Made by a program: the position numbers and the translations under genes. Source: a virus. Taken from it: 64,000 nucleotides of DNA. Below are positions 6,327-46,841 of the stretch, one piece after another. The notes under the pieces were generated by a model that saw only the letters and a program-made list of their open reading frames with translations, ran no database searches and was not told the DNA's origin. Within the stretch, counting starts at the first letter, position 1, and each line of letters opens with the position of its first letter. Location of the stretch: positions 1 to 64,000 of IMG/VR virus record IMGVR_UViG_3300009124_000007; one strand, written 5' to 3'.

Positions 6327-6668
6327 ATGTCTGAATTGGCACAAGATATTGTGGATAAAGTATTTGCTGGTGACAAGACTGGCACGATCGATGCAGTTGG
6401 TGCTGCAATTCAAGATCGAGCATACGACCTAATCCAGCAAAAGAAAGTCGAAGTCGCACAACAGTGGGGTTTCGAGTTGGACCAAACAGGTCAGGCAGCA
6501 GCAGATGAAGTTTCCGCTTCTCTTCCCGATGGGACTGACGAACCACAAGATTATGAAGTTGATGGTCGAATGCCTCATGATCCTCCCGAGGAATATGAGG
6601 AACCAACAGTAGAAACAACCCCAGAAGAAGAGGACACAGAAAATGAAACTGATCTCGGAACAGATTGA
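6327..6668 (+). CDS. Putative prohead core protein (gp67/gp68 position)
   Basis: 113 residues. The first half is helical and mixed-charge (DIVDKVFAGDKTGTIDAVGAA). The last 35 residues are very acidic (PEEEDTENET). It sits between portal and prohead protease, where T4 has the small core proteins gp67 and gp68. I assign the role by position and composition, not by a recognised domain. Its 3' end overlaps the protease gene by 26 bases. Confidence 0.6.
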   Translation: MSELAQDIVDKVFAGDKTGTIDAVGAAIQDRAYDLIQQKKVEVAQQWGFELDQTGQAAADEVSASLPDGTDEPQDYEVDGRMPHDPPEEYEEPTVETTPEEEDTENETDLGTD

Positions 6669-7287
6669 AGAAGTAAAATTTATTGCTGAGGAAACCGAAG
6701 GCAAGAAAAATTACTTTATCGAAGGAATCTTTCTTCAGGGAGAGATCAAAAACCGTAATGGGAGAATGTATCCCATGGCAGTTCTTGATCGCGAAGTTGG
6801 GAAGTACACTGAAGGTTTTATTCAGACTGGACGTGCTCTCGGTGAGTTGGGTCATCCCGATGGTCCTACTCTAAATCTAGATCGCGTTTCCCATAAGATC
6901 ATGTCTCTCCAAAAAGAGGGCACGAACTATGTGGGTCGCGCTAAAATTCTTGGTACACCAATGGGAGAAATTGCCAAGAATCTACTTGACGAGGGAATCA
7001 AACTGGGTGTTTCTTCACGCGGTATGGGTTCACTGGTCAAGAAAGAAGGATATCAAATGGTAGCAGATGATTTCATGCTTGCTACCGCTGCTGATATTGT
7101 AGCAGATCCTTCCGCTCCTGATGCATTTGTTGATGGAATTATGGAAGGAAAGGAATGGGTGTGGGATAACGGCATTTTGAAGGAAGCACAGGTTGCACAA
7201 ATCAAACAAGTTATTGATGAAGCAACTCTAATCAACCTTCAGGAGCGCAAAGTTTCCGCGTTCAAGTCATTTCTACAAAGTTTGTAA
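6643..7287 (+). CDS. gp21: Prohead core protease
   Basis: Serine protease that cuts scaffold, capsid and internal proteins after L-x-E or I-x-E sites during head maturation. 214 residues, matching the family. The catalytic-site segments are visible: GELGHPDGP with the likely catalytic His (about residue 69), and LGVSSRGMGS with the likely catalytic Ser (about residue 126). The start overlaps the previous gene, so translation is probably coupled. It lies directly before the scaffold. Confidence 0.94.
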   Translation: MKLISEQIEEVKFIAEETEGKKNYFIEGIFLQGEIKNRNGRMYPMAVLDREVGKYTEGFIQTGRALGELGHPDGPTLNLDRVSHKIMSLQKEGTNYVGRAKILGTPMGEIAKNLLDEGIKLGVSSRGMGSLVKKEGYQMVADDFMLATAADIVADPSAPDAFVDGIMEGKEWVWDNGILKEAQVAQIKQVIDEATLINLQERKVSAFKSFLQSL

Positions 7288-7337: not shown

Positions 7338-8408
7338 ATGTCTACTACTCTCGATAAAGAGTTTGAAGCGCATATGTCTGAGGAGACCGTCTCTGAGGAA
7401 GCAGCTACTGGTTATGCTGCAGTGAAAAAAGGCGCTAAATCTGGTGAAAAGATTGATCGTTCTGGTGCTAAATATGCCGAAATCGGTGGCACTAAGAATG
7501 ATTCCGAGGAAGGTGCTGCAGGCACTAAGAACCTCGGTGCTGCCGCTTCGGGTGCTGTAAGCGTCGAAGGCGACAAAACTCTGAAGACCAAACCATCCGA
7601 TGCATCCAGTGCAATGCCTGGTGCTCTTTCTGGTAAAATCTTTGACGAGGTAGAGACCGATGAAGAAGAGACAATCACTGAAGCCGAGTACGACTTTGCT
7701 GAAGATGTTGACGCTCTTGTCGCTGGTGAAGACCTCTCCGAAGAATTCAAAGATCGCGCAAAAACAATCTTTGAAGCAGCAGTAACTTCTAAAGTAAATG
7801 CAGAAGTTGCAGCACTAAAAGAAGCATTTGAGTCTGAACTTGAACAGCAAGTTGCAGCACTCAAAGAAGAATTGGCCACACAAGTTGACGATTACCTGTC
7901 GTATGCTGCTCAACAATGGATGACCGAGAATGAACTCGCCATTGAGCACGGTATCAAAAACGACATTGCTGAATCGTTCATGTCTGGTCTAAAAGGTTTG
8001 TTCACAGAACATCACATTGGTGTTCCTGAGGACAAGTTCAACATGCTGGAAGGCATGACTGAACAGCTTGATGAGATGGAAGGAAAACTCAACGAGCAAA
8101 TCGACACCAACGTCCAACTCAATAAGCAGTTGGGTTCTTATATGAAAATGGGTATTGTGAGCGAAGTCGCTGCAGGTCTCGCTGAGACTCAAAAGGAGAA
8201 GCTTGCTTCTCTGGCAGAGGGTGTTGAGTTTGAAAGTGAAGAAGATTTTCGTAAGAAAGTCGAAACTATTAGAGAATCCTACTTTACTCGCCGCGAAGCA
8301 GTAACTGCAGATGCGACCGAGGACGCAGAACCTCTGGTAGAAGAAGTCCAGCACACAAATACAGCGATGAGCAGATATGTGGATGCTCTAGCACGCTGGT
8401 CTAACTAA
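7338..8408 (+). CDS. gp22: Prohead scaffolding core protein
   Basis: Internal scaffold on which the capsid assembles; later degraded by gp21. The frame is open from an ATG at 7314, but AAAGGAGA at 7323-7330 sits 8 nt before the ATG at 7338, giving MSTTLDKEFEAHMSEE, so I choose 7338 (356 residues). The protein is very acidic. Residues about 140-280 are strongly helical and heptad-like (ELEQQVAALKEELATQ). It lies between protease and major capsid genes, the T4 order. Confidence 0.93.
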   Translation: MSTTLDKEFEAHMSEETVSEEAATGYAAVKKGAKSGEKIDRSGAKYAEIGGTKNDSEEGAAGTKNLGAAASGAVSVEGDKTLKTKPSDASSAMPGALSGKIFDEVETDEEETITEAEYDFAEDVDALVAGEDLSEEFKDRAKTIFEAAVTSKVNAEVAALKEAFESELEQQVAALKEELATQVDDYLSYAAQQWMTENELAIEHGIKNDIAESFMSGLKGLFTEHHIGVPEDKFNMLEGMTEQLDEMEGKLNEQIDTNVQLNKQLGSYMKMGIVSEVAAGLAETQKEKLASLAEGVEFESEEDFRKKVETIRESYFTRREAVTADATEDAEPLVEEVQHTNTAMSRYVDALARWSN

Positions 8409-8420
8409 TTGTAATTATTT

Positions 8421-8427
8421 GTAAATA
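8421..8427 (+). promoter_or_regulatory. Late promoter box before gp23
   Basis: GTAAATA, a variant of the late box, 30 nt before the major capsid ATG. An AACGGAG ribosome binding site follows at 8439-8445. Confidence 0.5.
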
Positions 8428-8456
8428 ACTATTTTTTCAACGGAGTAACAATTCAA

Positions 8457-9854
8457 ATGGCTGATCTCAGACAACTCCAGGAAAAGTGGGCACCCGTTCT
8501 TGACCACGAAGCACTTCCTAAAATTGAAGATGCTCACAAGCGCGGCGTCGTCGCCCAAATCCTGGAAAACCAAGAAAAAGCACTTACAGAAGAGGCACAA
8601 GTTCTCTCTGAGACTGTTCAAACAGTCGGTACAGGCGGTTTCGGTGGCGGTGCCACTGCAACTGGTCCTGTCGCAGGTTTCGACCCCGTTCTGATCTCCC
8701 TGATCAGACGCTCGATGCCCCAACTGATCGCTTACGATATCGCAGGCGTTCAACCCATGACTGGTCCTACTGGACTGATCTTCGCAATGCGTACTGCTTA
8801 TGGCAGCGAGCGCGATGCAACCAACGCCAACTTCCGTGAGGCATTCTTCAACGAGCCTAACGCAGGTTTCTCTGGTGGTCCTGGCACTGGTCTTGCTAAC
8901 TACGATCCTACCGCTTCTGGTAGCGCAGTCAACGATGCTGAAGGCAGCAACCCTGGTCTCCTCAATGACAGCCCTGCTGGCACCTATGAGGTAACTGGCG
9001 ATGCAACTGGCATGAGCACCTCTTCTGCTGAAGCACTGGATGACAGCGCAGCAGGTACTGCTTTCCGCGAAATGGGCTTCTCGATCGAGAAGGTAACCGT
9101 TACCGCTAAGAGCAGAGCACTGAAGGCAGAGTACAGCCTCGAACTGGCTCAAGACCTGAAGGCAGTTCATGGTCTAGATGCAGAGCAGGAACTCAGCAAC
9201 ATCCTTTCGACTGAGATCCTCGCTGAAATCAACCGTGAAGTTGTTCGTACCGTATACAGCAACGCTGTTGCAGGTGCTCAGAACAACACCGCAACTGCTG
9301 GTATCTTCGACCTCGACGTTGACTCCAACGGTCGTTGGTCTGTTGAGAAGTTCAAAGGTCTTCTGTTCCAGATCGAGCGCGATGCTAACGCAATCGGTCA
9401 TGAGACTCGTCGCGGGAAGGGCAACATCATGATCTGCTCTGCAGACGTTGCTAGCGCCCTCTCCATGGCAGGCGTTCTCGACTATGCTCCTGCTCTGAAC
9501 GGCAACAACGGTTTGATCCCTGACGACACCTCCAGCACCCTGGTTGGTACTCTGAACGGTCGCATCAAAGTCTACGTTGACCCCTACTCTGCAAACGTAA
9601 GTGACAAGCACTTCTACGTCATGGGTTATAAGGGTTCCAGCGCATATGACGCAGGTCTCTTCTACTGCCCATACGTTCCTCTGCAGATGGTTCGTGCAAT
9701 CAACCCTAACACCTTCCAGCCCAAGATTGGCTTCAAGACTCGTTACGGTATGGTTTCCAACCCATTCGCACAGGGTCTCACCCAGGGCACTGGTGCTCTC
9801 ACCGCGAACACCAACAAGTACTATCGTCGCGTACAGGTTGCTAACCTCATGTGA
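8457..9854 (+). CDS. gp23: Major capsid protein
   Basis: Builds the hexamers of the head shell. 465 residues. The N-terminal propeptide (LRQLQEKWAPVLDHEALP) ends at a probable gp21 site, L50-S51-E52. The following N-arm, residues 56-79, runs from TVGTGGF to AGFDPVL and is nearly duplicated in the protein at 45927. The shell core includes MRTAYGSERDATNANFREAFF and ends with a SNPFAQG-type segment. Codon use looks GC-richer than in neighbouring genes, as expected for the most highly expressed protein. A strong terminator follows. Confidence 0.98.
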   Translation: MADLRQLQEKWAPVLDHEALPKIEDAHKRGVVAQILENQEKALTEEAQVLSETVQTVGTGGFGGGATATGPVAGFDPVLISLIRRSMPQLIAYDIAGVQPMTGPTGLIFAMRTAYGSERDATNANFREAFFNEPNAGFSGGPGTGLANYDPTASGSAVNDAEGSNPGLLNDSPAGTYEVTGDATGMSTSSAEALDDSAAGTAFREMGFSIEKVTVTAKSRALKAEYSLELAQDLKAVHGLDAEQELSNILSTEILAEINREVVRTVYSNAVAGAQNNTATAGIFDLDVDSNGRWSVEKFKGLLFQIERDANAIGHETRRGKGNIMICSADVASALSMAGVLDYAPALNGNNGLIPDDTSSTLVGTLNGRIKVYVDPYSANVSDKHFYVMGYKGSSAYDAGLFYCPYVPLQMVRAINPNTFQPKIGFKTRYGMVSNPFAQGLTQGTGALTANTNKYYRRVQVANLM

Positions 9855-9879
9855 TATAGGCACTTCGCTTTTCTACTTC

Positions 9880-9905
9880 AGAGACCCTTCGGGGTCTCTT
9901 TTTTT
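9880..9905 (+). terminator. Terminator after gp23
   Basis: AGAGACC and GGTCTCT arms enclose a CTTCGG-type loop, followed by a T run. It ends the head-gene cluster. Confidence 0.9.
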
Positions 9906-9907
9906 GT

Positions 9908-9914
9908 CTAAATA
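9908..9914 (+). promoter_or_regulatory. Late promoter box before tail gene at 9939
   Basis: CTAAATA directly after the gp23 terminator T run, 24 nt before the ATG. Confidence 0.6.
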
Positions 9915-9938
9915 AGAATGTAGCAGACTCATAAAAGA

Positions 9939-10529
9939 ATGTCTCAGTGGTACGAAAGGGAAATCCAAAACAAAAATTATCTCTCTCCGATTGGTTTCCG
10001 TCTATTGATCCAGAAGGCACCAAAGGTTTCTTTTATGTGTCAAGATGTTGCTATACCATCAATCAATCTTGGTTCTGTAGAACTTCCATATAGAGGTTTT
10101 GTAACTACACCCGTTGAAGGTAACATCAAGTTTGAAGATTTTACTGTAGAATTTCTAGTCGATGAAGATCTAGAGAACTGGTTAGAAATCTATGATTGGA
10201 TTAGGGGTTTGGGTGTTGCTGCAGCAGCATCTGACAGATACGACTACCTAGAATCAAAGTTCAAAATCGGTGGTCAATCAGACATGTACAGAGCAGCAAA
10301 AGGAAACGAGAAGACTTCCGATACTGTTTTGATGGTTCAGAATAATAACTATGCTTTGAATTTTGAGATCGTTCTTAGAGATTGCTTCCCAATATCTCTA
10401 ACACCTCTACCATTCAATGTTACAAGTTCTGATAACAATTACATGACAGCAAGAGCAACGTTTAGATATACTTATTATGATGTATATAAATCTTACGATG
10501 CCTCTGGAGATCCAACTAGGGGGGGATAA
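9939..10529 (+). CDS. Tail tube-like or tail completion protein (gp3 position)
   Basis: 196 residues. The segment SVELPYRGFVTTPVEGNIKFEDFTVEFLVD parallels gp19's VIEVPYRGR and FEPWTV strands (quoted loosely; see both proteins), so I read it as a tube-fold protein. Cyanophages carry a gene annotated as gp3 (tail completion and sheath stabiliser) right after gp23, so it may cap the tube. The gp3 label rests on position; the tube-like fold rests on sequence. Its stop overlaps the next start (TAATG). Confidence 0.75.
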   Translation: MSQWYEREIQNKNYLSPIGFRLLIQKAPKVSFMCQDVAIPSINLGSVELPYRGFVTTPVEGNIKFEDFTVEFLVDEDLENWLEIYDWIRGLGVAAAASDRYDYLESKFKIGGQSDMYRAAKGNEKTSDTVLMVQNNNYALNFEIVLRDCFPISLTPLPFNVTSSDNNYMTARATFRYTYYDVYKSYDASGDPTRGG

Positions 10530-10993
10530 TGAAAATCGAATTTCATCATAGATGGGGTGGACAAGAAACTTGGTATACCAAGTCAATGGATTGGGCACGA
10601 AACCAGAAGTATCCATGGAACCAGATTTATAAAGGAATAATTCAATGGTTGTGGAAACATTGGGTTGATGGTAAAATCGAAATGGAAATGGATTCCGTTG
10701 ACAAACAAACAGAATCAATTGTAAAACAATGGGAAAAAGATGATGAGCGACCAAGACCAGAAATCGTGGAGACTGGAGTATTTGGAGAAGAAGGTTGGTC
10801 TATCTCCATGTCAGATCCAAATCTTGACAGAGGGTCCGAAGAGTCTGAGTCAGGCATGGGCACTACAAGCAATGAAATACGATTGGCAGAAAAAATTTCA
10901 GATCCGTGGGACTACTCAGGAGACTGGAACGACGCATTTATAGGATTTGATAATGAATTTAGAAAACATTCAGGAGATGTGGAAACGAGATAG
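10529..10993 (+). CDS. Hypothetical Trp- and acid-rich protein between gp3-like gene and uvsY
   Basis: 154 residues, not recognised. The first half is aromatic and basic (RWGGQETWYTKSMDWARN, QWLWKHWVDGK); the second half is acidic, with Ser/Glu-rich stretches. The start overlaps the preceding stop (TAATG), indicating coupled translation, and the end overlaps uvsY by 41 bases. Its place between a tail gene and a recombination gene gives no clear role. Confidence 0.7.
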   Translation: MKIEFHHRWGGQETWYTKSMDWARNQKYPWNQIYKGIIQWLWKHWVDGKIEMEMDSVDKQTESIVKQWEKDDERPRPEIVETGVFGEEGWSISMSDPNLDRGSEESESGMGTTSNEIRLAEKISDPWDYSGDWNDAFIGFDNEFRKHSGDVETR

Positions 10994-11381
10994 TGTTATC
11001 GATTCCGATCTCTACTGTGAGGAATCTACCAGGATTCCACAACTACATCAAAAGTACATGGAGTTGTTCAATACGTTCTTTCTAATGCAGAAGGAGCAAG
11101 AAGCAAAATTGAAAACAACTAAGCGTGATAAATGGTTATATTACAAAGGCAGAGCACCAGCATCAGTGTATAAGGATGCACCATTCGATCTAAAACTCAC
11201 CACCAGAGAAGAGATCGATATGTTTATCGAAGCAGATGAAGAGTACCAGAAGGTCATTCTAAAACTAGACTACATAGGACAGGTATTAGCATTTCTTGAT
11301 TCGGTTCTAAGGCAACTGAACAACCGAACATTCCAAATCAAGAATGCAATCGAGTGGCAAAAGTTTCAGAATGGATTATGA
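10953..11381 (+). CDS. uvsY: Recombination mediator UvsY
   Basis: Loads UvsX recombinase onto single-stranded DNA covered by gp32. The frame opens at a TTG (10947) but the ATG at 10953 (MNLENIQEMWKRDSVIDSD) is the natural start, giving 142 residues against 137 in T4. The N-terminal helix MxLExIQEMWKxD, the KWLYYKGRAP segment and the C-terminal FQIKNAIEWQKFQNG match the family. The ATGA overlap with the next gene suggests coupling. Confidence 0.92.
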   Translation: MNLENIQEMWKRDSVIDSDLYCEESTRIPQLHQKYMELFNTFFLMQKEQEAKLKTTKRDKWLYYKGRAPASVYKDAPFDLKLTTREEIDMFIEADEEYQKVILKLDYIGQVLAFLDSVLRQLNNRTFQIKNAIEWQKFQNGL

Positions 11382-11932
11382 GGTACGGTGACCCTTACAT
11401 TATTGTTGACATTCCCCCTATTACATGGGGGAACATAAAAAAACATCTGGAAACCATTCCCGTAGAAGGAGCAAAACTTTTCGGGAAAAAGGGTTTGGAA
11501 GATCAAAAAGGTATCCGCGACTCATATGTTGGATGGGTTAGTGAACCTAAAATTCTTGATTTGTTCTTCGATATGGGAGAGCAAGTCAATAAGAAAGCAG
11601 GTTGGAATCTAGACATTCAATATTTGGAACCACTCCAATATACCGTTTATCACAGAGATGGATTCTACGACTGGCACGTAGATCAACACCACATCTGCGA
11701 TGGAGAGACTAGAAAAATATCATTTACCTGTTGGGTGAATGATGACTATGAAGGAGGGGAGTTTGATTTAGAGTTACATCACCCAGGTCATAATCCCAGA
11801 CATAAATCTTTCTTTGCTCAACCAGGTAAAGCAATTTTCTTTATGTCTGATTATTTTCACCGCGTGCGTCCCATTACATCTGGCGTGCGTAAATCTTTAG
11901 TAGGTTGGTTTTCAGGTCCTCCATATGTCTAA
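11378..11932 (+). CDS. 2-oxoglutarate/Fe(II) oxygenase, prolyl-hydroxylase-like
   Basis: Predicted dioxygenase; substrate unknown. The double-stranded beta-helix iron site is visible as HVD in WHVDQHH and the distal His in DYFHRVRP, followed by the 2-oxoglutarate-binding Arg in SGVRKSLVGWF. The frame is open from a GTG at 11354, but ATG 11378 overlaps the uvsY stop as ATGA, so I choose it (184 residues). This is one of four such proteins in the window (also 23245, 35122 and 55003). Confidence 0.88.
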   Translation: MRYGDPYIIVDIPPITWGNIKKHLETIPVEGAKLFGKKGLEDQKGIRDSYVGWVSEPKILDLFFDMGEQVNKKAGWNLDIQYLEPLQYTVYHRDGFYDWHVDQHHICDGETRKISFTCWVNDDYEGGEFDLELHHPGHNPRHKSFFAQPGKAIFFMSDYFHRVRPITSGVRKSLVGWFSGPPYV

Positions 11933-13388
11933 TATCAAGATCCGTAAAAAGAACGAAGTATATTTGAAGGTAGAAACAGAACCTCATATTCACTATGAGT
12001 TGTCAGAGTTCTTTTGTTTTGAAGTTGAGTCTGCAAAATTTATGCAGCGTCAGCAACGTTATAAGCGTTGGGATGGAAAGATTCGCTTGTACTCCCCTGG
12101 CACAGGAGAAATCTATGTTGGATTGCTAGACTACCTAACTGACTGGGCATATGAGCGAGGGTATAGTTGGGAGTTTGAAGAGTGTAAATTCTTTGGGCAC
12201 CCAAAGGAAGAGAATGAAATGATCACTCCTGAGGGGGTCGTAGGTTTCGTAAAATCTCTGGGTCTACCACATCGCGTTCGGGATTATCAGTATAAAGCAA
12301 TATACGAGGCACTAAGATATAATAGACGACTTTTACTATCTCCGACAGCTTCTGGAAAGAGTCTGATGATTTACTCATTGGTCCGCTTCCATGTAAACGC
12401 TGGCAGGAACATCCTCATAGTAGTACCTACCACCAGTTTGGTAGAGCAGATGTACAAAGACTTTGAGGAATACGGATGGATGGCGTCCGAATATTGCCAC
12501 AAGATATACGCGGGGGCAGAAAAATACACGAATGCCCAGGTAGTAATTACCACTTGGCAATCTGTCTATAAGGAACCGCGTAAGTGGTTTGACAGGTTCG
12601 ATGTCGTGATTGGTGACGAGGCACACCTTTTCAAAGCTAAATCTCTTACTTCTCTTATGTCTAAGTTGCATGAGTGTAAGTATAGGATTGGATTTACTGG
12701 AACACTTGATGGAAGCAACACCAATCAACTAGTTTTGGAAGGTGTATTTGGTAGATGTAGTCAGGTCACTAAAACTAAAGACCTAATGCAAGCAGGTCAT
12801 GTTGCTAAACTCAAAGTGAAGATACTTGTTTTTCAACATAAGCAACAATCATTTTCAAACTACCAGGAAGAAATAGATTATATTGTATCTCACGAAGGGC
12901 GCAATAATTTTATTCGTAAACTAGCACAAGAACTCACTGGAAATACTCTAGTCTTATTCAACTATGTAGAGCGTCATGGAGACCCTCTTTATGAGATGAT
13001 AAATAATAGTACCAACAGACCAGTATTTTATGTACATGGTGGAGTAGAGGTACAAGATAGAGAAAGAGTTCGGACTATCACCGAACAATCAAATGACGCA
13101 ATTATCGTTGCATCCTTCGGCACATTCTCTACTGGTATCAATATCAAAAATCTACATAACGTTATTTTTGCTAGTCCTTCTAAGTCCAGAGTGAGGAACC
13201 TTCAATCAATAGGTCGTGTTCTGAGGAAAGGTGAAAATAAATCTCAAGCAGTGCTATATGATCTCGCTGATGACACTTCCAAAGGAATGTCTAGGCGAAA
13301 CTATACTCTGAATCACCTAATCGAAAGAGTAAAGGTGTACAACGAAGAGAAATTTGATTATGAAATCTTGGAAGTAAAGATCAAGTAG
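11925..13388 (+). CDS. uvsW: DNA/RNA helicase UvsW
   Basis: Superfamily 2 helicase that unwinds R-loops and branch-migrates recombination intermediates, switching T4 from origin-initiated to recombination-driven replication. 487 residues, as in T4. The N-terminal DNA-binding part has QRYKRWDGKIRLY. Walker A is SPTASGKS, the DEAH box is VIGDEAHLF, motif III is GFTGTL, and motif VI is QSIGRVLRKG. It overlaps the previous gene by 8 bases. Confidence 0.96.
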   Translation: MSNIKIRKKNEVYLKVETEPHIHYELSEFFCFEVESAKFMQRQQRYKRWDGKIRLYSPGTGEIYVGLLDYLTDWAYERGYSWEFEECKFFGHPKEENEMITPEGVVGFVKSLGLPHRVRDYQYKAIYEALRYNRRLLLSPTASGKSLMIYSLVRFHVNAGRNILIVVPTTSLVEQMYKDFEEYGWMASEYCHKIYAGAEKYTNAQVVITTWQSVYKEPRKWFDRFDVVIGDEAHLFKAKSLTSLMSKLHECKYRIGFTGTLDGSNTNQLVLEGVFGRCSQVTKTKDLMQAGHVAKLKVKILVFQHKQQSFSNYQEEIDYIVSHEGRNNFIRKLAQELTGNTLVLFNYVERHGDPLYEMINNSTNRPVFYVHGGVEVQDRERVRTITEQSNDAIIVASFGTFSTGINIKNLHNVIFASPSKSRVRNLQSIGRVLRKGENKSQAVLYDLADDTSKGMSRRNYTLNHLIERVKVYNEEKFDYEILEVKIK

Positions 13389-37598: not shown

Positions 37599-37788
37599 TT
37601 TCTGGATTCACTTGGTAGCATTCTTCCAAGTTGTCGTGATGAATTGCATTCAACCTGCCAACTGGAAGTATTGCTACCGTGTTGACCAGTGGTTGATCCC
37701 AGATCTTGTAGAAGGTTATGAGATCTGGACTCAGAAAAAACATCCTTATCAAAACGAAAAGGAATACCTAAATCGCATTGATAAATAA
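37591..37788 (+). CDS. Small protein with hydrophobic N-terminus
   Basis: 65 residues. MLSFWIHLVAFFQVVVMNC is a membrane or signal-like segment, followed by an aromatic/charged tail. Start overlaps the preceding gene. The stop overlaps a late-like box and a terminator follows. Confidence 0.68.
   Translation: MLSFWIHLVAFFQVVVMNCIQPANWKYCYRVDQWLIPDLVEGYEIWTQKKHPYQNEKEYLNRIDK
37780..37787 (+). promoter_or_regulatory. Late promoter box before gene 37812
   Basis: GATAAATA, one base off the consensus, 24 nt before the next ATG, the same spacing as for known late genes here. It sits just before a terminator hairpin, so its transcript would begin inside that hairpin. Confidence 0.5.
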
Positions 37789-39324: not shown

Positions 39325-40299
39325 ATGCCTGCTAATACTCATCTGGAACACCCCGAAGACATGGTTTTCCACGGGGAGTATATAAGTCTGCTCAACTTTT
39401 TCTACAATCTGCCGTCCAATCAGCGTGTATCAGTCAAGTGGGACGGTGCCCCTGCTTTGGTATGGGGTATATGCCCTTCCTCGGGTCGCTTCTTTGTAGG
39501 AACTAAGTCGGTTTTCAATAAGCGCAAGATCAAGATCAACTATAATCACCATGATATTGATATGAATCATGGTGACAATCCTGCTGTAGCATCTATTCTT
39601 CACGTTGCATTTGAGTGTCTTCCTGTTCCTGGCAACGGAGGTTATCTGCAGGGAGACTTCATTGGTTTTGGCGATACCAATACTTTCAAACCCAATACCA
39701 TTGAGTATCGGTTTGACAATACTATCAAGCAATCTATAGTTGTTGCTCTCCATACTCGTTATGAGGGTGCTTTTATCGAACCTCGCGTTCAGTTTGGTAT
39801 TAGTACCAACGATGTTATTTGGTCAGATCGTCGTCAAGATCGCTGCTATCTGATTGACACTGCCCATGCATCTGTGGAATACAAGTCTGTCTTCGGTAAG
39901 ATGTATCGCACTCAACTTGCAAAGTTTTTTGCTCACCGTGCTAAGTTTCCTGCTGCTCGTGCAACCACTCAGTACCTGAAAACTCACGTCAATAAATACA
40001 TCCGCCATGGCATCATGCCCACTGCTACTGAGATGTACGATTCGTTACCTGATAAATATAAGAGTCAAGTGAACGTTGATTTGTTTCGCCTCTTTGAGGT
40101 TATCTATAATCTGAAAAACAAAGTGATGAAACATATCGTTGTTTATAACCAAGCAGAATGTTACATTGATGGTCAACCCACTGATCATGAAGGTTTCGTG
40201 ATTACCAGTTCTGGTCAAACCTATAAAATGGTGAACAGGTTGGAATTTAGCAAAGCGAACTTTACCCTAGATAAAAATTGGACGAATGAAAAAGTTTAG
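39325..40299 (+). CDS. Ligase-like nucleotidyltransferase candidate
   Basis: 324 residues. VSVKWDGAPALVWG has the K-x-D-G motif I of DNA/RNA ligases and capping enzymes (Lys would carry the nucleotide). Near the end, HEGFVITSSG fits motif IV (E-G-x-V-I) and TYKMVNR fits a motif V Lys. FECLP...GDFIGFG may hold motif III. Similar cyanophage proteins are usually annotated as unknown (I believe DUF6267). Activity is inferred from these motifs only. It overlaps the nucleotidyltransferase gene at 40286 by 14 bases. Confidence 0.75.
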   Translation: MPANTHLEHPEDMVFHGEYISLLNFFYNLPSNQRVSVKWDGAPALVWGICPSSGRFFVGTKSVFNKRKIKINYNHHDIDMNHGDNPAVASILHVAFECLPVPGNGGYLQGDFIGFGDTNTFKPNTIEYRFDNTIKQSIVVALHTRYEGAFIEPRVQFGISTNDVIWSDRRQDRCYLIDTAHASVEYKSVFGKMYRTQLAKFFAHRAKFPAARATTQYLKTHVNKYIRHGIMPTATEMYDSLPDKYKSQVNVDLFRLFEVIYNLKNKVMKHIVVYNQAECYIDGQPTDHEGFVITSSGQTYKMVNRLEFSKANFTLDKNWTNEKV

Positions 40300-41458
40300 C
40301 ACCTTCCTTAGCGAGGCGGCAAAATCCACAGCAGGACAGCAAGCAGAGAAACTAGGACTTACCCATGCTGGGTATGGTCGCTGGATGAACAAACGTGGCG
40401 AGGTGACACACATCTCAAAGCAGGGCAAACTGATTCCTATAGCACAACAACCCGAAGTAGCACCAGATGGAGGAGAGGCACCAGCACCCGAAGCGCAACA
40501 ACCCGCTGCGCCAGAAGCACCTGGAGAGGTATCTAAAGGTCCGATTACTATTACTTTTGGAAGATTCAATCCTCCTACTACAGGGCATGAAAAACTCATT
40601 CAGCAGGTAGCATCACAAGCAGGTGATGGTGACTATCGAATCTACCCATCACGCTCCCAGGATCCTAAGAAGAATCCTCTGGATCCAGAAACTAAGGTGC
40701 ATTACATGCGCTTGGCATATCCAGATCATGCTCATGCTATCCACAATGATGATAATATGAAGAGCATCTTTGATGTTCTTGAGGGACTATATGGTGAGGG
40801 GTATAGTGATGTCAATATTGTAGTTGGTGGCGATCGAGTAAAAGAGTTTGATGCTCTCGCTAACAAGTACAACGGCAAACTTTATAACTTTACCAGCATC
40901 AATGTGAAGTCTGCTGGTGATCGTGACCCAGATGCTGATGATGTATCTGGCATGTCTGCATCTAAACTTCGTGCTCATGCAGCAGAGAATGACTACGAAT
41001 CTTTTTCTTCTGGTTTGTCTAAGAACCTAGAGGATAAGCACAAGAAAGAACTGTTTGCACATTTGCGTGGTAATATGAAGATGGAGGAGGCAGAAGATTT
41101 TGCTGAAGCATCTTTTGTTCTTCATGAAGTTGCTCCCAAACTAGATCCTACAAGTTTACGTGAAGCATATTACAACAAAGAAATTTTCAAAGTCGGACAG
41201 ATTGTTGAGAATTTGAACACTGGTGTGATCGGTAAGGTTGTATCACGCGGTGTAAATTACGTTATATACATAGATGAGCATGAGGAAATTTATCGCGGTT
41301 GGTTGAAGGATCTCGTGGAGAGAAACGACATCAAACGCTTTGATTTTACTCCGCTTGGTAAGATTGGTACAGATGAACTAGCACATAAAGTTGCTGCTAT
41401 GACACCTGGACAATTTATTCAGAAGATAAATAAAAGAAACAAAACTGCTGAACGATGA
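40286..41458 (+). CDS. Cytidylyltransferase-like protein with capsid-targeting-like N-terminus
   Basis: 390 residues. The N-terminus MKKFSTFLSEA strongly resembles the T4 capsid-targeting sequence of internal proteins (MKTYQEFIAE) and ends in L-S-E, a gp21 cleavage pattern also found in this phage's gp23. From about residue 90, TITFGRFNPPTTGHEKLI is the nucleotidyltransferase HxGH-type motif (T-x-G-H), and SGMSASKLRAHA is the second (S-x-x-x-x-R-like) motif. The C-terminal part is a separate domain. Predicted: an enzyme packaged in the head. ATGA-type overlap with the next gene. Confidence 0.82.
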   Translation: MKKFSTFLSEAAKSTAGQQAEKLGLTHAGYGRWMNKRGEVTHISKQGKLIPIAQQPEVAPDGGEAPAPEAQQPAAPEAPGEVSKGPITITFGRFNPPTTGHEKLIQQVASQAGDGDYRIYPSRSQDPKKNPLDPETKVHYMRLAYPDHAHAIHNDDNMKSIFDVLEGLYGEGYSDVNIVVGGDRVKEFDALANKYNGKLYNFTSINVKSAGDRDPDADDVSGMSASKLRAHAAENDYESFSSGLSKNLEDKHKKELFAHLRGNMKMEEAEDFAEASFVLHEVAPKLDPTSLREAYYNKEIFKVGQIVENLNTGVIGKVVSRGVNYVIYIDEHEEIYRGWLKDLVERNDIKRFDFTPLGKIGTDELAHKVAAMTPGQFIQKINKRNKTAER

Positions 41459-42498
41459 ACTACGAAGCACTGCCTGGAATGGAAGAAGCACTAAGACTAG
41501 TGCAAGAAAAGAAGATGAGCAAAGAAGCTCATAAGAAAGCTGCTAAGGCGGGCAAGCGTTGGCAGGACTCCGATGGTGACGGTAAGTGGTATGAACCTGG
41601 TGAGGATGTAAAAGAAGCAAAGAAGGATGACACATATCTGGAAACGGATATGAAGAAGCGCCAAGCAAATAACGAGAAGGCTCGTAAGGAACTTGCAAAG
41701 GGTCCTCAAATGAAGAACCCACACTTTGAAGAAGTCCAACTAGAAGGTGTCCGTGACACTGACCCAGAGAAGGGCACTGAAGAGAGAAAGGCACGTCTTG
41801 AGAAGAAGCGTGGCATGAAACTCGATGACCATCCTCAGTATAAGAAGGAAGAGGTTGAACTAGACGAGAACCGTGCTGCTGCTCGTGCTGCTGGTGGTTA
41901 TAAGGATGACAGCAAGAAGCAGACCGATCCTTCTAAGGCAGGTTTCACTGGCATCTCTGGTAGCATCAAAGACATCATGCGCCAGAACAAAGAGATCGAA
42001 GCAGCAAATAAAGCAAAGGCGAAGAAGGAAGAAGTAGAACTTGAGGAAGGTAAGAACAAAGAAGGAAAAGAGCAGGGTGTTGACGGTAAAGCATGTTGGA
42101 AAGGTTACCGCTATGCTGGCACCGAGAATGGTAAGGACAAGTGCGTTCCTGCTAACGAGGAACTAGAGACCATGGAAGCAAGTCTGCTTGAGTCTGGTCT
42201 GTTCTCTGATGATGAAGTACGTTACATCATCGGTGAGAAGTTCGACGAACTTGAGGAACTCTACAAAGGTAAGCACGGTCAGTCTGAGAAAGAGTATCAG
42301 GATGGTCGCTCTGATGGCGGCAAGATGGTTTCGGGTGACAGCAAGCACAGTGGTGCTGCATACTCCTCCCGTGCTGTCAAGAATAGTGGTCCTAATCCTG
42401 CAGGTGGATCTAAGAAACCTCAGGGTCAGGGTCGTATGACTTCTGGTGCTCGTGCTGATCTACAGTATCGTAAGGCAAATATGAAGGCAGGTAAGTGA
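41455..42498 (+). CDS. Lys/Glu-rich putative internal virion protein
   Basis: 347 residues, very rich in Lys and Glu. Repeated short motifs KKEEVELDE and KKEEVELEE contain L-x-E patterns suited to gp21 cleavage. DSDGDGKWYEPGED resembles a calcium-binding D-x-D-x-D-G loop. A segment ACWKGYRYAGTENGKDKCVP holds a Cys pair. The gene is between the CTS-bearing enzyme and another basic protein. I infer a structural or packaged role; no known family recognised. Confidence 0.68.
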   Translation: MNYEALPGMEEALRLVQEKKMSKEAHKKAAKAGKRWQDSDGDGKWYEPGEDVKEAKKDDTYLETDMKKRQANNEKARKELAKGPQMKNPHFEEVQLEGVRDTDPEKGTEERKARLEKKRGMKLDDHPQYKKEEVELDENRAAARAAGGYKDDSKKQTDPSKAGFTGISGSIKDIMRQNKEIEAANKAKAKKEEVELEEGKNKEGKEQGVDGKACWKGYRYAGTENGKDKCVPANEELETMEASLLESGLFSDDEVRYIIGEKFDELEELYKGKHGQSEKEYQDGRSDGGKMVSGDSKHSGAAYSSRAVKNSGPNPAGGSKKPQGQGRMTSGARADLQYRKANMKAGK

Positions 42499-44675
42499 TG
42501 GCAGACGAAAAGAAAGTCACTGGTAAGCAATCCAAAATCAAAGTCAACCCACGATCTGAAGAAATAATGGAACGCAGAACTAATATCGCAAGACAAATCC
42601 TCGGCAATAAACTCACAGAAATGAGAGTTGCCGATGACTTTGATCACTTTGCAGCAGATCATTTCACTGATGAAGAACTTCTAGAAATCTGCGAAGAAGT
42701 TCTCTCAGAAATGAATACTGAAGATCTGGAAGAGATCTGTGAAGCGATTGAAACTAACCTGGAAGTCATCTCTGAGAGAATGGATCCTAAAGAGATCCAA
42801 CGTCGTAGAGACCAGGCAAAGGATAGACTTGCAACTGGTGCTGCAATGAAGAAAGCAGCAGAAAAGTCTGCTGCAGAGAAATCCTCAACCACATCTTCCG
42901 ATGCAAAACCATCTCGTGCAGAACGTGTCAAGTCTGCTCTCAAGAAAGCTGCTTCGACCACTAAGAATGTCGCTAAGAAAGTCGCTAAGGGTGCTGGAGA
43001 GGTCGCTGGTGCTGCTCGTGCTGGCTACCGCGATGCTGCGGGTTCCTCATCCTCTGGAAATACTGCTGGATCTTCTAGTGGTTCTTCTAGTAGTTCTTCT
43101 TCTTCCTCTAGTGGCGGTGGGTCATCGTCTGGAGGCAGTGGGGAGAACAGAGTCAGACTTCGTGACAGACTGAAAGGTGCTATCAAGAAAGGTGTAGGCA
43201 AACTTGCACGTTCAGTATCTCGTGGTGCTCGCAACGTTGCTCGTAAGATGGGTGAAGAAACTGTACTTGGTTTCTCCGCATTCATTACTGAAGGCAAAGT
43301 CAAGTGTAAGGAGTGTGCTGGCAAAGGTTGCAAGCACTGTGGTGATAAGGGTTACATGGTGACCCATGACTGCTCCAAGAAAGTAGAACATGCTGAGTGG
43401 GGTATTGGTGAGTGTATTGCTGAGCAGCATACACTAGATGAAGAAGGTAACATCACTCACTACGATGTTCAGTTTGAGCATGGTTTGGAAGAGAATGTAT
43501 CTGTAGAGGTTCTCAAGACTCTTGTCTCTGAAATGCATGAACATGCTATCAACTACGACAAGAACCAGGAGGTACTTGGCGAAAAAAAGGATGAAGAGGG
43601 GTTCGCTGGTGAAGCAACCTCTTACAAAGGTGTAGTAATCAGACGTACCAAGTCTGGTTATGAAGCACCTAGATTCAATCTAAAGAGCAATTCTGTCGAT
43701 GGTATCAAGCAGAACATCGATAAAGAGATTGCTAAGGTTGATGAGTCCTACAAACCAGATGCTGCTAACAACTACAACGGTCCTCTCTATGCTCCCTGGA
43801 CTGCTGTGAAGAAAGAAGATGTAGAATATGTTGATGAGGATTCCCGTCGTATGAGCAATAAGCAACATACTGCTCGTGTAAAACAAAACATCAAAACTTT
43901 TGGAAGTAATTTCACTCCACCCAATAACTATGACCCCGATGCTAATCGTGGTAAGGGTGAAGTTGTTACTCGTAAACAGATGGAGAAGAAGCGTCGTAAG
44001 GCACTTCGTCAAGAAGAAACTATCCTAGAGCGTGGTGACTATTGGCATCCAGATCCTGAGAAGGATAAGAAACTGGGTGGTCCTGGTGCTAACCAACGTG
44101 CTCGTGAAGATCGTGGATCTAAATCTTCTTCCTCTTCTTCCTCCTCCTCTTCCGATTCTAAGAAACTGAAGCCAGGTGAGTCCTATATGGACTATGCTAA
44201 GCGTCAGAAGTCGGGTAAGTCTTCTTATGCGTCCAGTGGTAAGACTGCTCGTGAGCGTCTTCAGAAAGCAGGTGCAAAATTTTCGACTCCTGCTAAGAAA
44301 GAAGGACTCCGTGATAAGATCAAGCGTAAGTTGGGTCTGAAAAAAGAAGAGTTTGCCATGCAGGAAGGCAGAGCAGAAGATGCACAAGCATCTCTAGCAA
44401 AAGTCAAAGCACGTCAGAAGGTTCTCGATGCACATGAGAAGAAGACTGGCAGGAAACTTGACATCTCTAAGACACCTGAGCACAAAGCACACAAGAAAGA
44501 ATTCCCTGGTGCTAAACGCACTGGTAAGAAAGTTCCTGGTGCTAAGGAGACTCCTGCTGAAACTCAGCGTAGACAAACCAATCGTCAGGTTTCTAGGGTC
44601 GTCAAGCATGGTTACACTTCTAAAGAAAAGAAAGAAGTTGAATCGATGGCAAAGCATACCTCAGCAAGAGATTGA
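42498..44675 (+). CDS. Large basic Ser-rich protein with DnaJ-like zinc finger, putative internal virion protein
   Basis: 725 residues. Order: acidic helical N-terminus; Lys/Ala-rich stretch resembling histone-like tails (KKAASTTKNVAKKVAKGAGE); poly-Ser/Gly linker (about 185-220); VLGFSAFITEG, like an internal capsid-targeting/gp21 site (F-I-T-E); CKECAGKGCKHCGDKG, a DnaJ-type C-x-x-C-x-G-x-G zinc motif; a second poly-Ser run; and a basic C-terminus. Suggests a packaged DNA-binding protein cut by gp21. Start by TGATG overlap. Confidence 0.7.
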   Translation: MADEKKVTGKQSKIKVNPRSEEIMERRTNIARQILGNKLTEMRVADDFDHFAADHFTDEELLEICEEVLSEMNTEDLEEICEAIETNLEVISERMDPKEIQRRRDQAKDRLATGAAMKKAAEKSAAEKSSTTSSDAKPSRAERVKSALKKAASTTKNVAKKVAKGAGEVAGAARAGYRDAAGSSSSGNTAGSSSGSSSSSSSSSSGGGSSSGGSGENRVRLRDRLKGAIKKGVGKLARSVSRGARNVARKMGEETVLGFSAFITEGKVKCKECAGKGCKHCGDKGYMVTHDCSKKVEHAEWGIGECIAEQHTLDEEGNITHYDVQFEHGLEENVSVEVLKTLVSEMHEHAINYDKNQEVLGEKKDEEGFAGEATSYKGVVIRRTKSGYEAPRFNLKSNSVDGIKQNIDKEIAKVDESYKPDAANNYNGPLYAPWTAVKKEDVEYVDEDSRRMSNKQHTARVKQNIKTFGSNFTPPNNYDPDANRGKGEVVTRKQMEKKRRKALRQEETILERGDYWHPDPEKDKKLGGPGANQRAREDRGSKSSSSSSSSSSDSKKLKPGESYMDYAKRQKSGKSSYASSGKTARERLQKAGAKFSTPAKKEGLRDKIKRKLGLKKEEFAMQEGRAEDAQASLAKVKARQKVLDAHEKKTGRKLDISKTPEHKAHKKEFPGAKRTGKKVPGAKETPAETQRRQTNRQVSRVVKHGYTSKEKKEVESMAKHTSARD
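43055..43140 (+). repeat. Poly-Ser/Gly codon repeat
   Basis: A run of tct/tcc/agt/ggt codons encoding Ser and Gly within the protein at 42498. A similar run of tcttcc codons is at 44120-44160. These are in-frame low-complexity linkers, prone to length change. Confidence 0.75.
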
Positions 44676-44976: not shown

Positions 44977-45561
44977 ATGTCTTTATACGGAAGAGTTGAC
45001 TCTGTTGCCAACCAGACCGCTGTTGGTCTTACTAGAGGTAATGGCGCAGGGTCTGCAACAGAAACAATTGTTTTCGTTGACGAAACGGAAGCAGGTCTTG
45101 CAGCAAACAAAGAGCGTGGCATCACTGCTCCTGGTTGGTGGGCATATCGTACCTACACTGATGCAGCAGGTAGCACCCGTCATAAAGCAGAGCACCTGAT
45201 GGTTCTCACTAATCCTGAGGCAAACGCACAAGAGACTCTCGCTGACGACACCATCGCAGCAGACGTTCAAGCACTCATCACCATCTCTGCACAACCTACC
45301 GATCAGACCACCGTCAGCGGCGCAGCAACCTTCAGCGTTACTGCTGCTTGTGATAACAGTGGCACGGTTACCTTCCAGTGGCAGAAGAAGACAGCAGGTA
45401 GCACCCGCTATGTCAACGTCTCTGGTGCAACCTCTGCATCTCTGGCACTCACAGGTCAAACCGCATCCGAAACTGGTGACAAGTATCGCGTCAAGTTGAA
45501 TGCTAACGTTGGTGCTCCTGAGGTTATCTCTGATGCTGTAACACTAACATTTGGCACCTGA
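44977..45561 (+). CDS. Virion structural protein with Ig-like domain
   Basis: 194 residues. The first 80 residues (SLYGRVDSVANQTAVG, GITAPGWWAYRTYTDAAG) read like a cyanophage head or neck decoration protein. From about residue 100, ITISAQPTDQTTVSGAATFSV, then TVTFQWQKK and GDKYRVKLNAN, form an Ig-like beta sandwich such as those on phage surfaces. Codon use is GC-rich, like gp23, suggesting high expression. Late box upstream. Confidence 0.78.
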   Translation: MSLYGRVDSVANQTAVGLTRGNGAGSATETIVFVDETEAGLAANKERGITAPGWWAYRTYTDAAGSTRHKAEHLMVLTNPEANAQETLADDTIAADVQALITISAQPTDQTTVSGAATFSVTAACDNSGTVTFQWQKKTAGSTRYVNVSGATSASLALTGQTASETGDKYRVKLNANVGAPEVISDAVTLTFGT

Positions 45562-45567
45562 TAATAT

Positions 45568-45930
45568 ATGAACTTCAGCGAACTGAATGCTAATAACTAC
45601 ATTCTGTTCGCCATCAAACATTATGAAAATCCTCAGAGCGTAACGCGAGAGGATTTTGATGAAGACATGAAACGCTTCAAGTATCTCAAGAGATTGTTCA
45701 AGAGATACTTGAAGTCTCATGATTTGAGAACTCATCTCATCATCAATCATATTATTATTTTGTATAATGTTTTTGGCGAAGCAGCAACACCGTTACTCTT
45801 TTTCAAACTGGAAAGGGAGTATTGGCCTTTGCTAAAAACCTTTCTATTATTTTTGAATAAATATCCTGTAGGCATGTTGCCAGGATTAGATATCGAAGAA
45901 GAAATTCAAGAGGAGCTTGATAAACTATGA
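45568..45930 (+). CDS. Conserved cyanophage protein
   Basis: 120 residues, helical, rich in Leu/Phe/Tyr (FKYLKRLFKRYLKSHDLRTH and WPLLKTFLLFLNKYPVGMLPG). Acidic end. Stop overlaps the next start (ATGATGA). No function recognised. Confidence 0.72.
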   Translation: MNFSELNANNYILFAIKHYENPQSVTREDFDEDMKRFKYLKRLFKRYLKSHDLRTHLIINHIIILYNVFGEAATPLLFFKLEREYWPLLKTFLLFLNKYPVGMLPGLDIEEEIQEELDKL

Positions 45931-46841
45931 TGACCGTAGGTACTGGTGGTTTTAGTGGTTCCGCTGCAGCAACTGGACCTGTAGCAGGGTTCGATCCTGT
46001 CTTGGATTTTCGTAAGAGAATGGCAAACAAGATCAAAGATCATCCTTATGCCCAGCAGTATAAGGAGAAGCGTAAGAAAGCAAAAAAACTGAAAGAGGCA
46101 ATGGATCGCCATGCCCATCAGGTTGCTCATCTCTACCAGTACAAAGTAAACATCCCTGAAGTGGGTGAAACTATTATCTTCGCATCTTCGCAAGCAGAAC
46201 TAACAATGAAGATGCGTCTTCTTATCAACCCACGCTATCGTGGTGATGTAAAGATTGATAGAATCTTCCCTTCTGATGCTGGAAAGTTTTATAACGAAAA
46301 GAGAATGAAAGCATATAAAAATCTCCCTGAGCAGATGGAAGATCCTGCAGACAAAGCAGCAGCTGCTTCGGCAAAGAAAGAGCAAGATGCTGCTAAGAAG
46401 GCAAATGATGCTGCTAAGAAACAAGCAGCAGCACTGAAGAAGCAACAGTCGCAGAAAGAAATTGCCACCAAGATTGCTGCAGAGAAGAAAAAAATTCAAC
46501 TGAAGACTGCAGAGATGCAGAAAACACTGCAAACTAAGATTGCAGGCATGAAAAAAGCAGCAGCATCTGGCGCATCTACTGGTGGTGTTGCCGAAGAGTT
46601 CATGCATGAATCTTCAGGTGGTAACATCGATGCAATCAAAAAGATTGCTGATAGCAATCAACCAGGTAAGATTACATTCTTGAATGGCGAGAGTTTCCAA
46701 CTCCAACCAGCAATTGCACAGAAAATTTTCCAAGCATACGAGACACTAGGTATGCAAAGGAACAAAGCGAAGTTTAGTAATGCTGCAAATGAGAATACAC
46801 AATCATTCCAAAAGATCTTAGATTTTGTGGGGCAGTCATAA
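45927..46841 (+). CDS. Virion protein candidate beginning with a copy of the gp23 N-arm
   Basis: 304 residues. Residues 3-26 (from TVGTGGF to AGFDPVL) match residues 56-79 of this phage's gp23 at about 21 of 24 positions, yet the DNA uses different codons at many of them, so the match is kept at the protein level. The rest differs: basic DFRKRMANKIKDHPYAQQY, an Ala/Lys-rich coiled coil (about 135-215) and a helical C-terminus. The motif may bind the same partner that the capsid N-arm binds inside the head. Two adjacent ATGs (45927 and 45930); TAATG with the next gene. Confidence 0.78.
   Translation: MMTVGTGGFSGSAAATGPVAGFDPVLDFRKRMANKIKDHPYAQQYKEKRKKAKKLKEAMDRHAHQVAHLYQYKVNIPEVGETIIFASSQAELTMKMRLLINPRYRGDVKIDRIFPSDAGKFYNEKRMKAYKNLPEQMEDPADKAAAASAKKEQDAAKKANDAAKKQAAALKKQQSQKEIATKIAAEKKKIQLKTAEMQKTLQTKIAGMKKAAASGASTGGVAEEFMHESSGGNIDAIKKIADSNQPGKITFLNGESFQLQPAIAQKIFQAYETLGMQRNKAKFSNAANENTQSFQKILDFVGQS

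What the first reader, a model, noticed from the sequence alone, without database searches (positions are those of the whole stretch)
40286..44675. Three consecutive genes look like head-packaged proteins processed by gp21
40286 begins MKKFSTFLSEA, close to the T4 capsid-targeting sequence (MKTYQEFIAE) and ending in L-S-E like this phage's gp23 site. 41455 has repeated VELDE and VELEE sites. 42498 has FSAFITEG, an internal version of the tag, within a Lys/Ser-rich DNA-binding-like protein. Together they form an operon of putative internal proteins, one of them an enzyme, that would be injected with the DNA.
Basis: partly seen in the sequence, partly recalled or inferred. Interest (0 to 1): 0.7.

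Follow-up and report, generated by a model that had tools for sequence, protein, structure and literature searches.

The report
Tagged enzyme packed in cyanophage heads
A virus of marine cyanobacteria puts on one of its enzymes the same kind of ten-residue address tag that phage T4 uses to load proteins into its head, and relatives of this enzyme have been found inside purified virus particles, so it is probably carried in the head and delivered with the DNA at infection.

Summary
The window is 64 kb of a 77-kb T4-like cyanophage contig. ORF 40286 starts MKKFSTFLSE|A, a T4-type capsid-targeting sequence (CTS). In 16 orthologues the four positions that matter in T4 IPIII (4, 7, 8, 10) are invariant or conservative, other tag positions vary, and the linker behind is only 20% identical. 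Orthologues were found in virions of S-SM1, S-SZBM1, S-CREM2 and S-SCSM1 (literature); I read the tag in the first three. A regex fixed beforehand gives four hits in the whole S-CREM2 genome, all virion-detected proteins (SAM lyase, kinase, this enzyme, a small protein). Behind the tag lies a mobile ~36-residue domain, absent from Pfam, which also fronts kinases and gp12-like proteins (hhalign E 1e-14 to 1e-15). The enzyme has an NMN/NaMN-adenylyltransferase-like fold; substrate unknown. For ORF 42498 head packaging is plausible: a homologue is virion-detected and the internal FSAFITEG is matched in S-ShM2. For ORF 41455 the 'gp21 sites' are not above chance. Cleavage and injection are inferred, not shown. 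Not found in the papers searched: the link between this known virion enzyme and a CTS, and the shared tag-plus-domain module.

The parts
40286..41458 (+). Nucleotidyltransferase (NMNAT/cytidylyltransferase-like, T4-GC190 orthologue), 390 aa, with N-terminal CTS
   Evidence: phrog_395 E=2.9e-120, PF01467 E=4.5e-4; 77.9% to S-ShM2_181 = T4-GC190
40286..40315 (+). T4-type capsid-targeting sequence MKKFSTFLSE; predicted gp21 cut after codon 10 (E|A)
   Evidence: positions 4, 7, 8, 10 conserved in 16/16 orthologues; compare T4 IPII/IPIII MKTYQEFIAE|A; the cut is inferred
40340..40441 (+). Mobile post-tag domain (aa 19-52), shared with cyanophage kinases and gp12-like proteins
   Evidence: hhalign E=1.2e-14 and 1e-15; profile search; AF2 helix + 4 strands
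40442..40537 (+). Disordered, poorly conserved Pro/Gln-rich linker (aa 53-84)
   Evidence: pairwise identity 0.20; pLDDT<50
40538..41080 (+). Nucleotidyltransferase core (aa 85-265) with TxGH and SxSxxR-type motifs
   Evidence: best PDB match NaMN adenylyltransferase 8aih E=6.5e-5
41141..41323 (+). Conserved C-terminal beta-rich domain (aa 286-346), low-confidence model
   Evidence: pairwise identity 0.47; strands in a low-confidence model
41455..42498 (+). Modular Lys/Glu-rich protein, 347 aa, two KKEEVEL[DE]E motifs; virion membership unsupported
41842..41868 (+). KKEEVELDE (aa 130-138)
   Evidence: loose gp21-site count not above chance
42022..42048 (+). KKEEVELEE (aa 190-198)
42498..44675 (+). 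Lys/Ser-rich protein (725 aa from ATG; GTG 42495 also possible), histone-like N-terminal half, candidate internal head protein
   Evidence: aa 48-255 homologous to virion-detected S-SZBM1 gp139, E=1.4e-27
43272..43292 (+). Internal CTS-like motif FSAFITE followed by G (candidate gp21 site)
   Evidence: shuffle P=0.0028; FGEFVTEG at the same place in S-ShM2
41425..41432 (+). NATAAATA late promoter-like site 30 nt before ORF 41455, position kept in six relatives
40051..40058 (+). NATAAATA late promoter-like site 235 nt before ORF 40286
   Evidence: counterparts at 232-235 nt in S-ShM2, S-SSM4, P-SSM4
37780..37787 (+). GATAAATA late promoter-like site before ORF 37812
6643..7287 (+). gp21 prohead core serine protease (presumed processing enzyme)
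   Evidence: PF03420 E=4.8e-33
8457..9854 (+). gp23 major capsid protein with candidate site VLSE|T
   Evidence: PF07068 E=1.3e-148

Best explanation
ORF 40286 encodes a late-made nucleotidyltransferase that is loaded into the prohead core by a T4-type capsid-targeting sequence (residues 1-10). The prohead protease gp21 then most likely removes the tag after Glu10; the mature protein (post-tag domain, flexible linker, enzyme, C-terminal domain) stays in the DNA-filled head and is probably delivered to the host with the DNA. It belongs to a wider set of cyanophage virion enzymes that share the tag and, in several cases, the mobile post-tag domain. ORF 42498 is plausibly a DNA-compacting internal head protein with an internal copy of the tag. 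Shown here: tag conservation, its association with virion-detected proteins, the shared domain. From literature: detection of orthologues in virions. Inferred: core binding, gp21 cleavage, injection, substrate.
For: Tag positions 4, 7, 8, 10 conserved in 16/16 orthologues while the linker is 20% identical; these are the T4 IPIII targeting/processing positions (PMC9026906). Orthologues detected in virions: S-SM1 (tag MKKFSAFLNE|A), S-SZBM1 gp140 (MRFRQFIIE|A), S-CREM2 gp154 (MKNFSSFLTE|A), S-SCSM1. Pre-fixed regex: 4 hits in S-CREM2, 4 of 4 virion-detected, p=0.0029. Tag also on SAM lyase and kinases. Post-tag domain shared by nucleotidyltransferases, kinases and gp12-like proteins. The phage has gp21, gp22, gp23. 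Late promoter-like sites.
Against: No N-terminal peptide mapping exists, so cleavage is unproven. Some orthologues lack the tag (P-HM2, ACG-2014e) or have a degenerate one (S-8S55, S-PRM1). S-SZBM1 gp191 and gp192 are tagged but were not detected (small proteins, only 30 proteins found). The authors of the proteome papers allow that such enzymes could be contaminants. gp13 and gp154 rest on 1 and 3 peptides.
Confidence: 0.78

Rival explanations
1. The enzyme is an ordinary intracellular auxiliary metabolic enzyme that merely co-purifies with virions; the N-terminal motif is a family feature unrelated to head targeting.
For: The enzyme core occurs without tag in jumbo coliphages (ELP-22) and in P-HM2 and ACG-2014e; authors name contamination as a possibility.
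Against: Detected independently in four phages by different groups; the same tag sits on unrelated virion-detected proteins; the tag is conserved where the adjoining linker is not.
Confidence: 0.1
2. It is a structural or scaffold component: the tagged protein serves prohead core assembly (like IPIII in T4) and enzymatic activity or injection is secondary or lost.
For: T4 IPIII deletion affects head assembly (PMC9026906); the gene is a cyanophage core gene next to other head-protein genes.
Against: Superfamily motifs TxGH/HxGH and SxSxxR are kept in the orthologues, which suggests an active enzyme; tag also on SAM lyase and kinase.
Confidence: 0.15
3. All three genes, encode gp21-processed internal proteins injected together.
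For: S-SZBM1 gp139, homologous to aa 48-255 of ORF 42498 and in the matching gene position, is virion-detected; FxxF[ILV]xE in ORF 42498 P=0.0028 and matched in S-ShM2; S-SZBM1 gp194, homologous to its C-terminal half, has an internal tag in front of a domain that is N-terminally tagged in S-CREM2 gp6.
Against: Loose gp21 sites in ORF 41455 are at chance level and the repeat motif varies in relatives (KKEELEQVDE, KKEEVEYVEE); S-SZBM1 gp138, related to it, was not detected.
Confidence: 0.35

Closest known systems
T4 internal proteins IPII/IPIII (and Alt) with capsid-targeting sequence, processed by gp21
   Same: N-terminal 10-residue tag with the same key positions and E|A junction; detected in virions; phage has gp21/gp22/gp23
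   Different: Cargo is a nucleotidyltransferase with an extra post-tag domain; no sequence relationship to the IPs beyond the tag; cleavage and injection not demonstrated
Cyanophage virion cytidylyltransferase / NMNAT (T4-GC190; S-SM1, S-SZBM1, S-SCSM1, S-CREM2)
   Same: Orthologue; same gene neighbourhood; tag present in the three sequences read
   Different: Published work reports virion presence but, in the papers searched, no targeting signal
Cyanophage virion kinases (S-CRM01 PKN8, S-CREM2 gp14)
   Same: Tag or tag-like N-terminus and homologous post-tag domain; reported in virions
   Different: Kinase in place of the nucleotidyltransferase; the domain occurs twice in S-CREM2 gp14
Nicotinate/nicotinamide mononucleotide adenylyltransferases (NadD, NadM)
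   Same: Fold and superfamily motifs
   Different: Sequence identity under 20% in the structural alignment; substrate untested; TTGH in place of HxGH here (HxGH in S-SZBM1 and S-CREM2)

Membership tests
T4-type CTS-bearing internal head protein | N-terminal ~10-residue tag with aromatic 4, F7, I/L8, E10 | tested here: met
   16/16 orthologues
T4-type CTS-bearing internal head protein | Presence in the virion | tested here: met
   For orthologues only, from published MS: S-SM1, S-SZBM1, S-CREM2, S-SCSM1; not for this phage
T4-type CTS-bearing internal head protein | Removal of the tag by gp21 after E10 | not testable with these tools
   gp21 gene present; junction E|A conserved; no N-terminal peptide data
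T4-type CTS-bearing internal head protein | Ejection into the host with DNA | not testable with these tools
   Needs infection experiments
T4 IPI/IPII/IPIII proper | Homology beyond the tag | tested here: not met
   Families matched are cytidyltransferases, not internal proteins; the tag-plus-domain profile finds nothing in T4
Cyanophage T4-GC190 cytidylyltransferase | Sequence orthology and gene order (DUF6267 upstream, head proteins and gp61 downstream) | tested here: met
NMN/NaMN adenylyltransferase | Nucleotidyltransferase fold with (H/T)xGH and SxSxxR-type motifs | tested here: met
NMN/NaMN adenylyltransferase | Activity on NMN or NaMN | not testable with these tools
   fold matches NadD, PPAT and NMNAT alike
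gp21-processed protein (ORF 41455) | Excess of gp21 sites over chance | tested here: not met
   7 against 4.3 expected, P=0.12
gp21-processed protein (ORF 42498) | Conserved internal CTS-like site | tested here: inconclusive
   P=0.0028; matched in S-ShM2, not found in S-SZBM1 gp139 or S-CAM22

The most novel reading that the evidence does not exclude
T4-like cyanophages use a modular delivery system: a T4-type tag removable by gp21 and, in many cases, a mobile ~36-residue domain are attached to unrelated enzymes (nucleotidyltransferase, kinase, SAM lyase, gp12-like protein), so that scanning for the tag predicts the set of enzymes each phage injects at time zero; internal tags let one polypeptide be cut into several cargo proteins in the prohead.
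Probability: 0.55. Interest if true: 0.85.

Novelty: new variant of a known kind. Interest (0 to 1): 0.7.

Why it matters
Several groups found 'non-structural' enzymes in cyanophage virions and could not say whether they are cargo or contamination. A T4-type targeting tag on these proteins gives a mechanism and a sequence rule. The rule makes it directly testable which proteins some of the ocean's commonest phages inject at the start of infection, and it extends T4's best-known packaging signal to a distant phage family. It also points to possibly injected SAM lyases (which would blunt restriction-modification), kinases and nucleotide-cofactor enzymes.

Tried and rejected
Reading every L/I-x-E in ORF 41455 as a gp21 site: rejected, counts are at chance level. 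NAD+ rebuilding pair (NMNAT plus NAMPT): no PF04095 protein in 15 records, so no support. Sequence search of solved structures with the orthologue alignment: only a chance-level hit. A second regex ([KRQ].?[FY]..[FY][ILVF].E) was partly shaped after seeing S-CREM2 gp136 and gp154, so the statistic quoted uses only the regex fixed. S-SZBM1 alone gives no enrichment with that regex (0 of 2 tagged proteins detected; gp140 has a tag one residue shorter and escapes it). The 'Cas9' label of S-CREM2 gp12 was not adopted: no Pfam match.

Full report
WHAT THE WINDOW IS. The window is bases 1-64000 of a 76,966-base viral contig. It holds gp17 to gp23-type genes in T4 order on the + strand. It is a T4-like cyanophage; for the protein in question the closest isolate is S-ShM2 (77.9%).

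THE OBSERVATION. The three ORFs overlap by a few bases (40286-41458, 41455-42498, 42498-44675). The phage's gp23 has the candidate site VLSE|T, and the contig encodes gp21 (PF03420), gp22 (PF25623) and gp23.

THE TAG ON ORF 40286. I aligned 16 non-redundant orthologues: marine cyanophages of several genera, freshwater metagenome phages (MKSYRDFLSEG, MKRYKEFLNEA), S-CREM1, S-CREM2 and S-SZBM1. Position 7 is F in 16/16, position 10 is E in 16/16, position 8 is L or I in 16/16, position 4 is F, Y or L in 16/16, position 11 is A or G in 15/16; positions 3, 5, 6 and 9 vary. Mutagenesis of T4 IPIII assigned targeting to residues 4 and 7 and processing to 8 and 10 (PMC9026906). T4's own IPII/IPIII tag is MKTYQEFIAE|A and its gp23 carries FGSFLTE|A. 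The linker at residues 53-84 has a mean pairwise identity of 0.20 against 0.58 for the tag, so the tag is under selection of its own. More distant tagged orthologues are MC09 (MKGFSNFLIE|A) and, weaker, Stenotrophomonas phage DLP6 (MKNIKDILE|A); the jumbo coliphage ELP-22 enzyme has no tag. P-HM2 and ACG-2014e lack it and S-8S55 and S-PRM1 have a degenerate form.

VIRION EVIDENCE. The orthologue (cyanophage core cluster T4-GC190) was found in purified S-SM1 particles (PMC3037559); I read its tag, MKKFSAFLNE|A. S-SZBM1 gp140 (PMC9146016 Table 1) has MRFRQFIIE|A. S-CREM2 gp154 (PMC10665884 Table 3) has MKNFSSFLTE|A. S-SCSM1 ORF91 was detected too (PMC9602691; tag not read). To test whether the tag predicts virion proteins in general I used the regex M[KR].[FYLI]..[FYLMI][ILVM].E, fixed before S-CREM2 was fetched. 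Among 3,148 candidate start codons of the complete S-CREM2 genome it gives exactly four hits, gp6, gp13, gp14 and gp154, and all four are among the 52 of 219 proteins detected by the authors (hypergeometric p = 0.0029; 4e-4 if only non-structural proteins are counted). gp6 is a SAM lyase by Pfam (PF23780) and gp14 a kinase. The virion-detected gp136 (MQTFSMFFSE, Lys-rich), gp12 (LRFASFMAEA from residue 17) and, weakly, gp15 (MNFSEFNES) have related N-termini. In S-CRM01, S-B68 and S-H34 the neighbouring quartet gp15-gp14-gp13-gp12 recurs with tag-like N-termini.

THE POST-TAG DOMAIN. Residues 19-52 (AEKLGLTHAGYGRWMNKRGEVTHISKQGKLIPI) form a small domain (predicted helix and four strands) that Pfam does not hold. 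With the tag left out, its profile matches the equivalent stretch of cyanophage kinases (hhalign E = 1.2e-14) and of gp12-like proteins (E = 1e-15) (these E-values are for single pairwise comparisons). A profile search of 20 records finds tag-plus-domain in 16: the nucleotidyltransferase in most, kinases and gp12-like proteins in cluster C, and a 961-aa phrog_3561 protein in ACG-2014f. So tag plus domain behaves as a movable front end for unrelated proteins. Some tagged proteins (S-CREM2 gp6 and gp154, S-SZBM1 gp140) lack the domain, so it is not needed for packaging; a part in keeping cargo folded, core-bound or ejectable is a guess.

INTERNAL TAGS AND ORF 42498. This ORF has FSAFITE|G at aa 260-266 (GTG numbering; shuffle P = 0.0028); its S-ShM2 homologue has FGEFVTE|G at the same place. 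S-SZBM1 gp139, homologous to its N-terminal half and in the matching gene position behind the nucleotidyltransferase, is virion-detected. A natural experiment supports internal tags: S-SZBM1 gp194, homologous to the C-terminal half of ORF 42498, carries FITYREFIAE|G inside, and the domain right behind it is homologous to the SAM lyase of S-CREM2 gp6 (39% over 121 aa, E = 2e-14), where the tag is N-terminal. P-SSM4 has YYQDFIKLVE|G and AG-345-E02 MRTFQEFQQLCE|G in front of the same domain. ORF 41455 has no such support beyond its place; S-SZBM1 gp138, related to it, was not detected.

EXPRESSION. NATAAATA, the cyanophage late promoter (PMC2984593), occurs 16 times on the + and once on the - strand of the window. 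One copy lies 30 nt before ORF 41455 and has a counterpart 27-42 nt before the same gene in six relatives; others precede ORF 37812 and the head protein at 44977. A copy 235 nt before ORF 40286 has counterparts in S-ShM2, S-SSM4 and P-SSM4. This fits late expression at the time of head assembly. Some copies lie in coding sequence, so conserved peptides could contribute.

THE ENZYME. AlphaFold2 gives its best confidence at residues 85-265, within a model of low overall confidence (mean pLDDT 56.6). The best solved matches are NaMN adenylyltransferases (8aih, E = 6.5e-5), then phosphopantetheine adenylyltransferases and archaeal NMNAT. TTGH and SASKLR correspond to superfamily motifs (motif knowledge from memory). 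The substrate is not decided. Early supply of a dinucleotide cofactor such as NAD+ is a possible use for an injected enzyme, but no NAMPT partner was found.

HOW IT LIKELY WORKS. Late transcription; the tag binds the gp22-type core; the shell closes; gp21 cuts after E10 and frees the enzyme; DNA is packaged around it; ejection carries it into the host. Core binding, cutting and ejection are inferred from T4.

JUDGEMENT. The virion enzyme was already known. The targeting tag on it and the shared module were not found in the papers searched (an open-access library that misses most subscription journals).

Noticed in passing
45927-46841 (compare 8457-9854): This phrog_696 protein begins MMTVGTGGFSGSAAATGPVAGFDPVL, a near copy of the stretch of this phage's gp23 just behind its VLSE site (TVQTVGTGGFGGGATATGPVAGFDPVL). 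S-CREM2 gp160, virion-detected, likewise resembles its own gp23 arm. A gp23-arm mimic of unknown purpose.
   Followed up: partly
L005, S-SZBM1 gp194 (record 123252-125375); L050 P-SSM4; L049 AG-345-E02; L047 S-CREM2 gp6: SAM lyase-type domains (PF23780) of cyanophages stand behind CTS-like tags, N-terminal in some and internal in others, which suggests virion-delivered anti-restriction.
   Followed up: partly
L025, S-CREM2 7704-13331; L042 S-CRM01; L043 S-B68; L044 S-H34: A four-gene block (gp15, kinase gp14, small gp13, gp12) with tag-like N-termini in all four genes recurs in cluster C cyanophages; all four S-CREM2 products are virion-detected.
   Followed up: partly
L025, S-CREM2 gp12 (7704-10313): Published as CRISPR-Cas9, but it has no Pfam match (E up to 0.1) and belongs with phrog_3561 of unknown function; the Cas9 label looks doubtful.
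   Followed up: no
L037, Bellamy gp170 (annotated start at 7049): The annotated start misses the tag: the open frame continues upstream to MKSLFQFLNEA at 7001.
   Followed up: yes
39325-40299: A DUF6267 protein is a near-constant upstream neighbour of the enzyme, and phrog_455 covers both as one chain; its function and any virion presence are unknown.
   Followed up: no
43293-43360: Right behind the internal tag of ORF 42498 is a cysteine-rich zinc-finger-like stretch, CKECAGKGCKHCGDKGY; in S-PRM1 a similar stretch (CPECKGDGCKHCDDKGY) sits elsewhere in the homologue.
   Followed up: no
whole window: TATAAATA occurs 8 times, all on the + strand, against 1.6 expected, several just before gp18, gp20, gp22 and the head protein at 44977.
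   Followed up: yes
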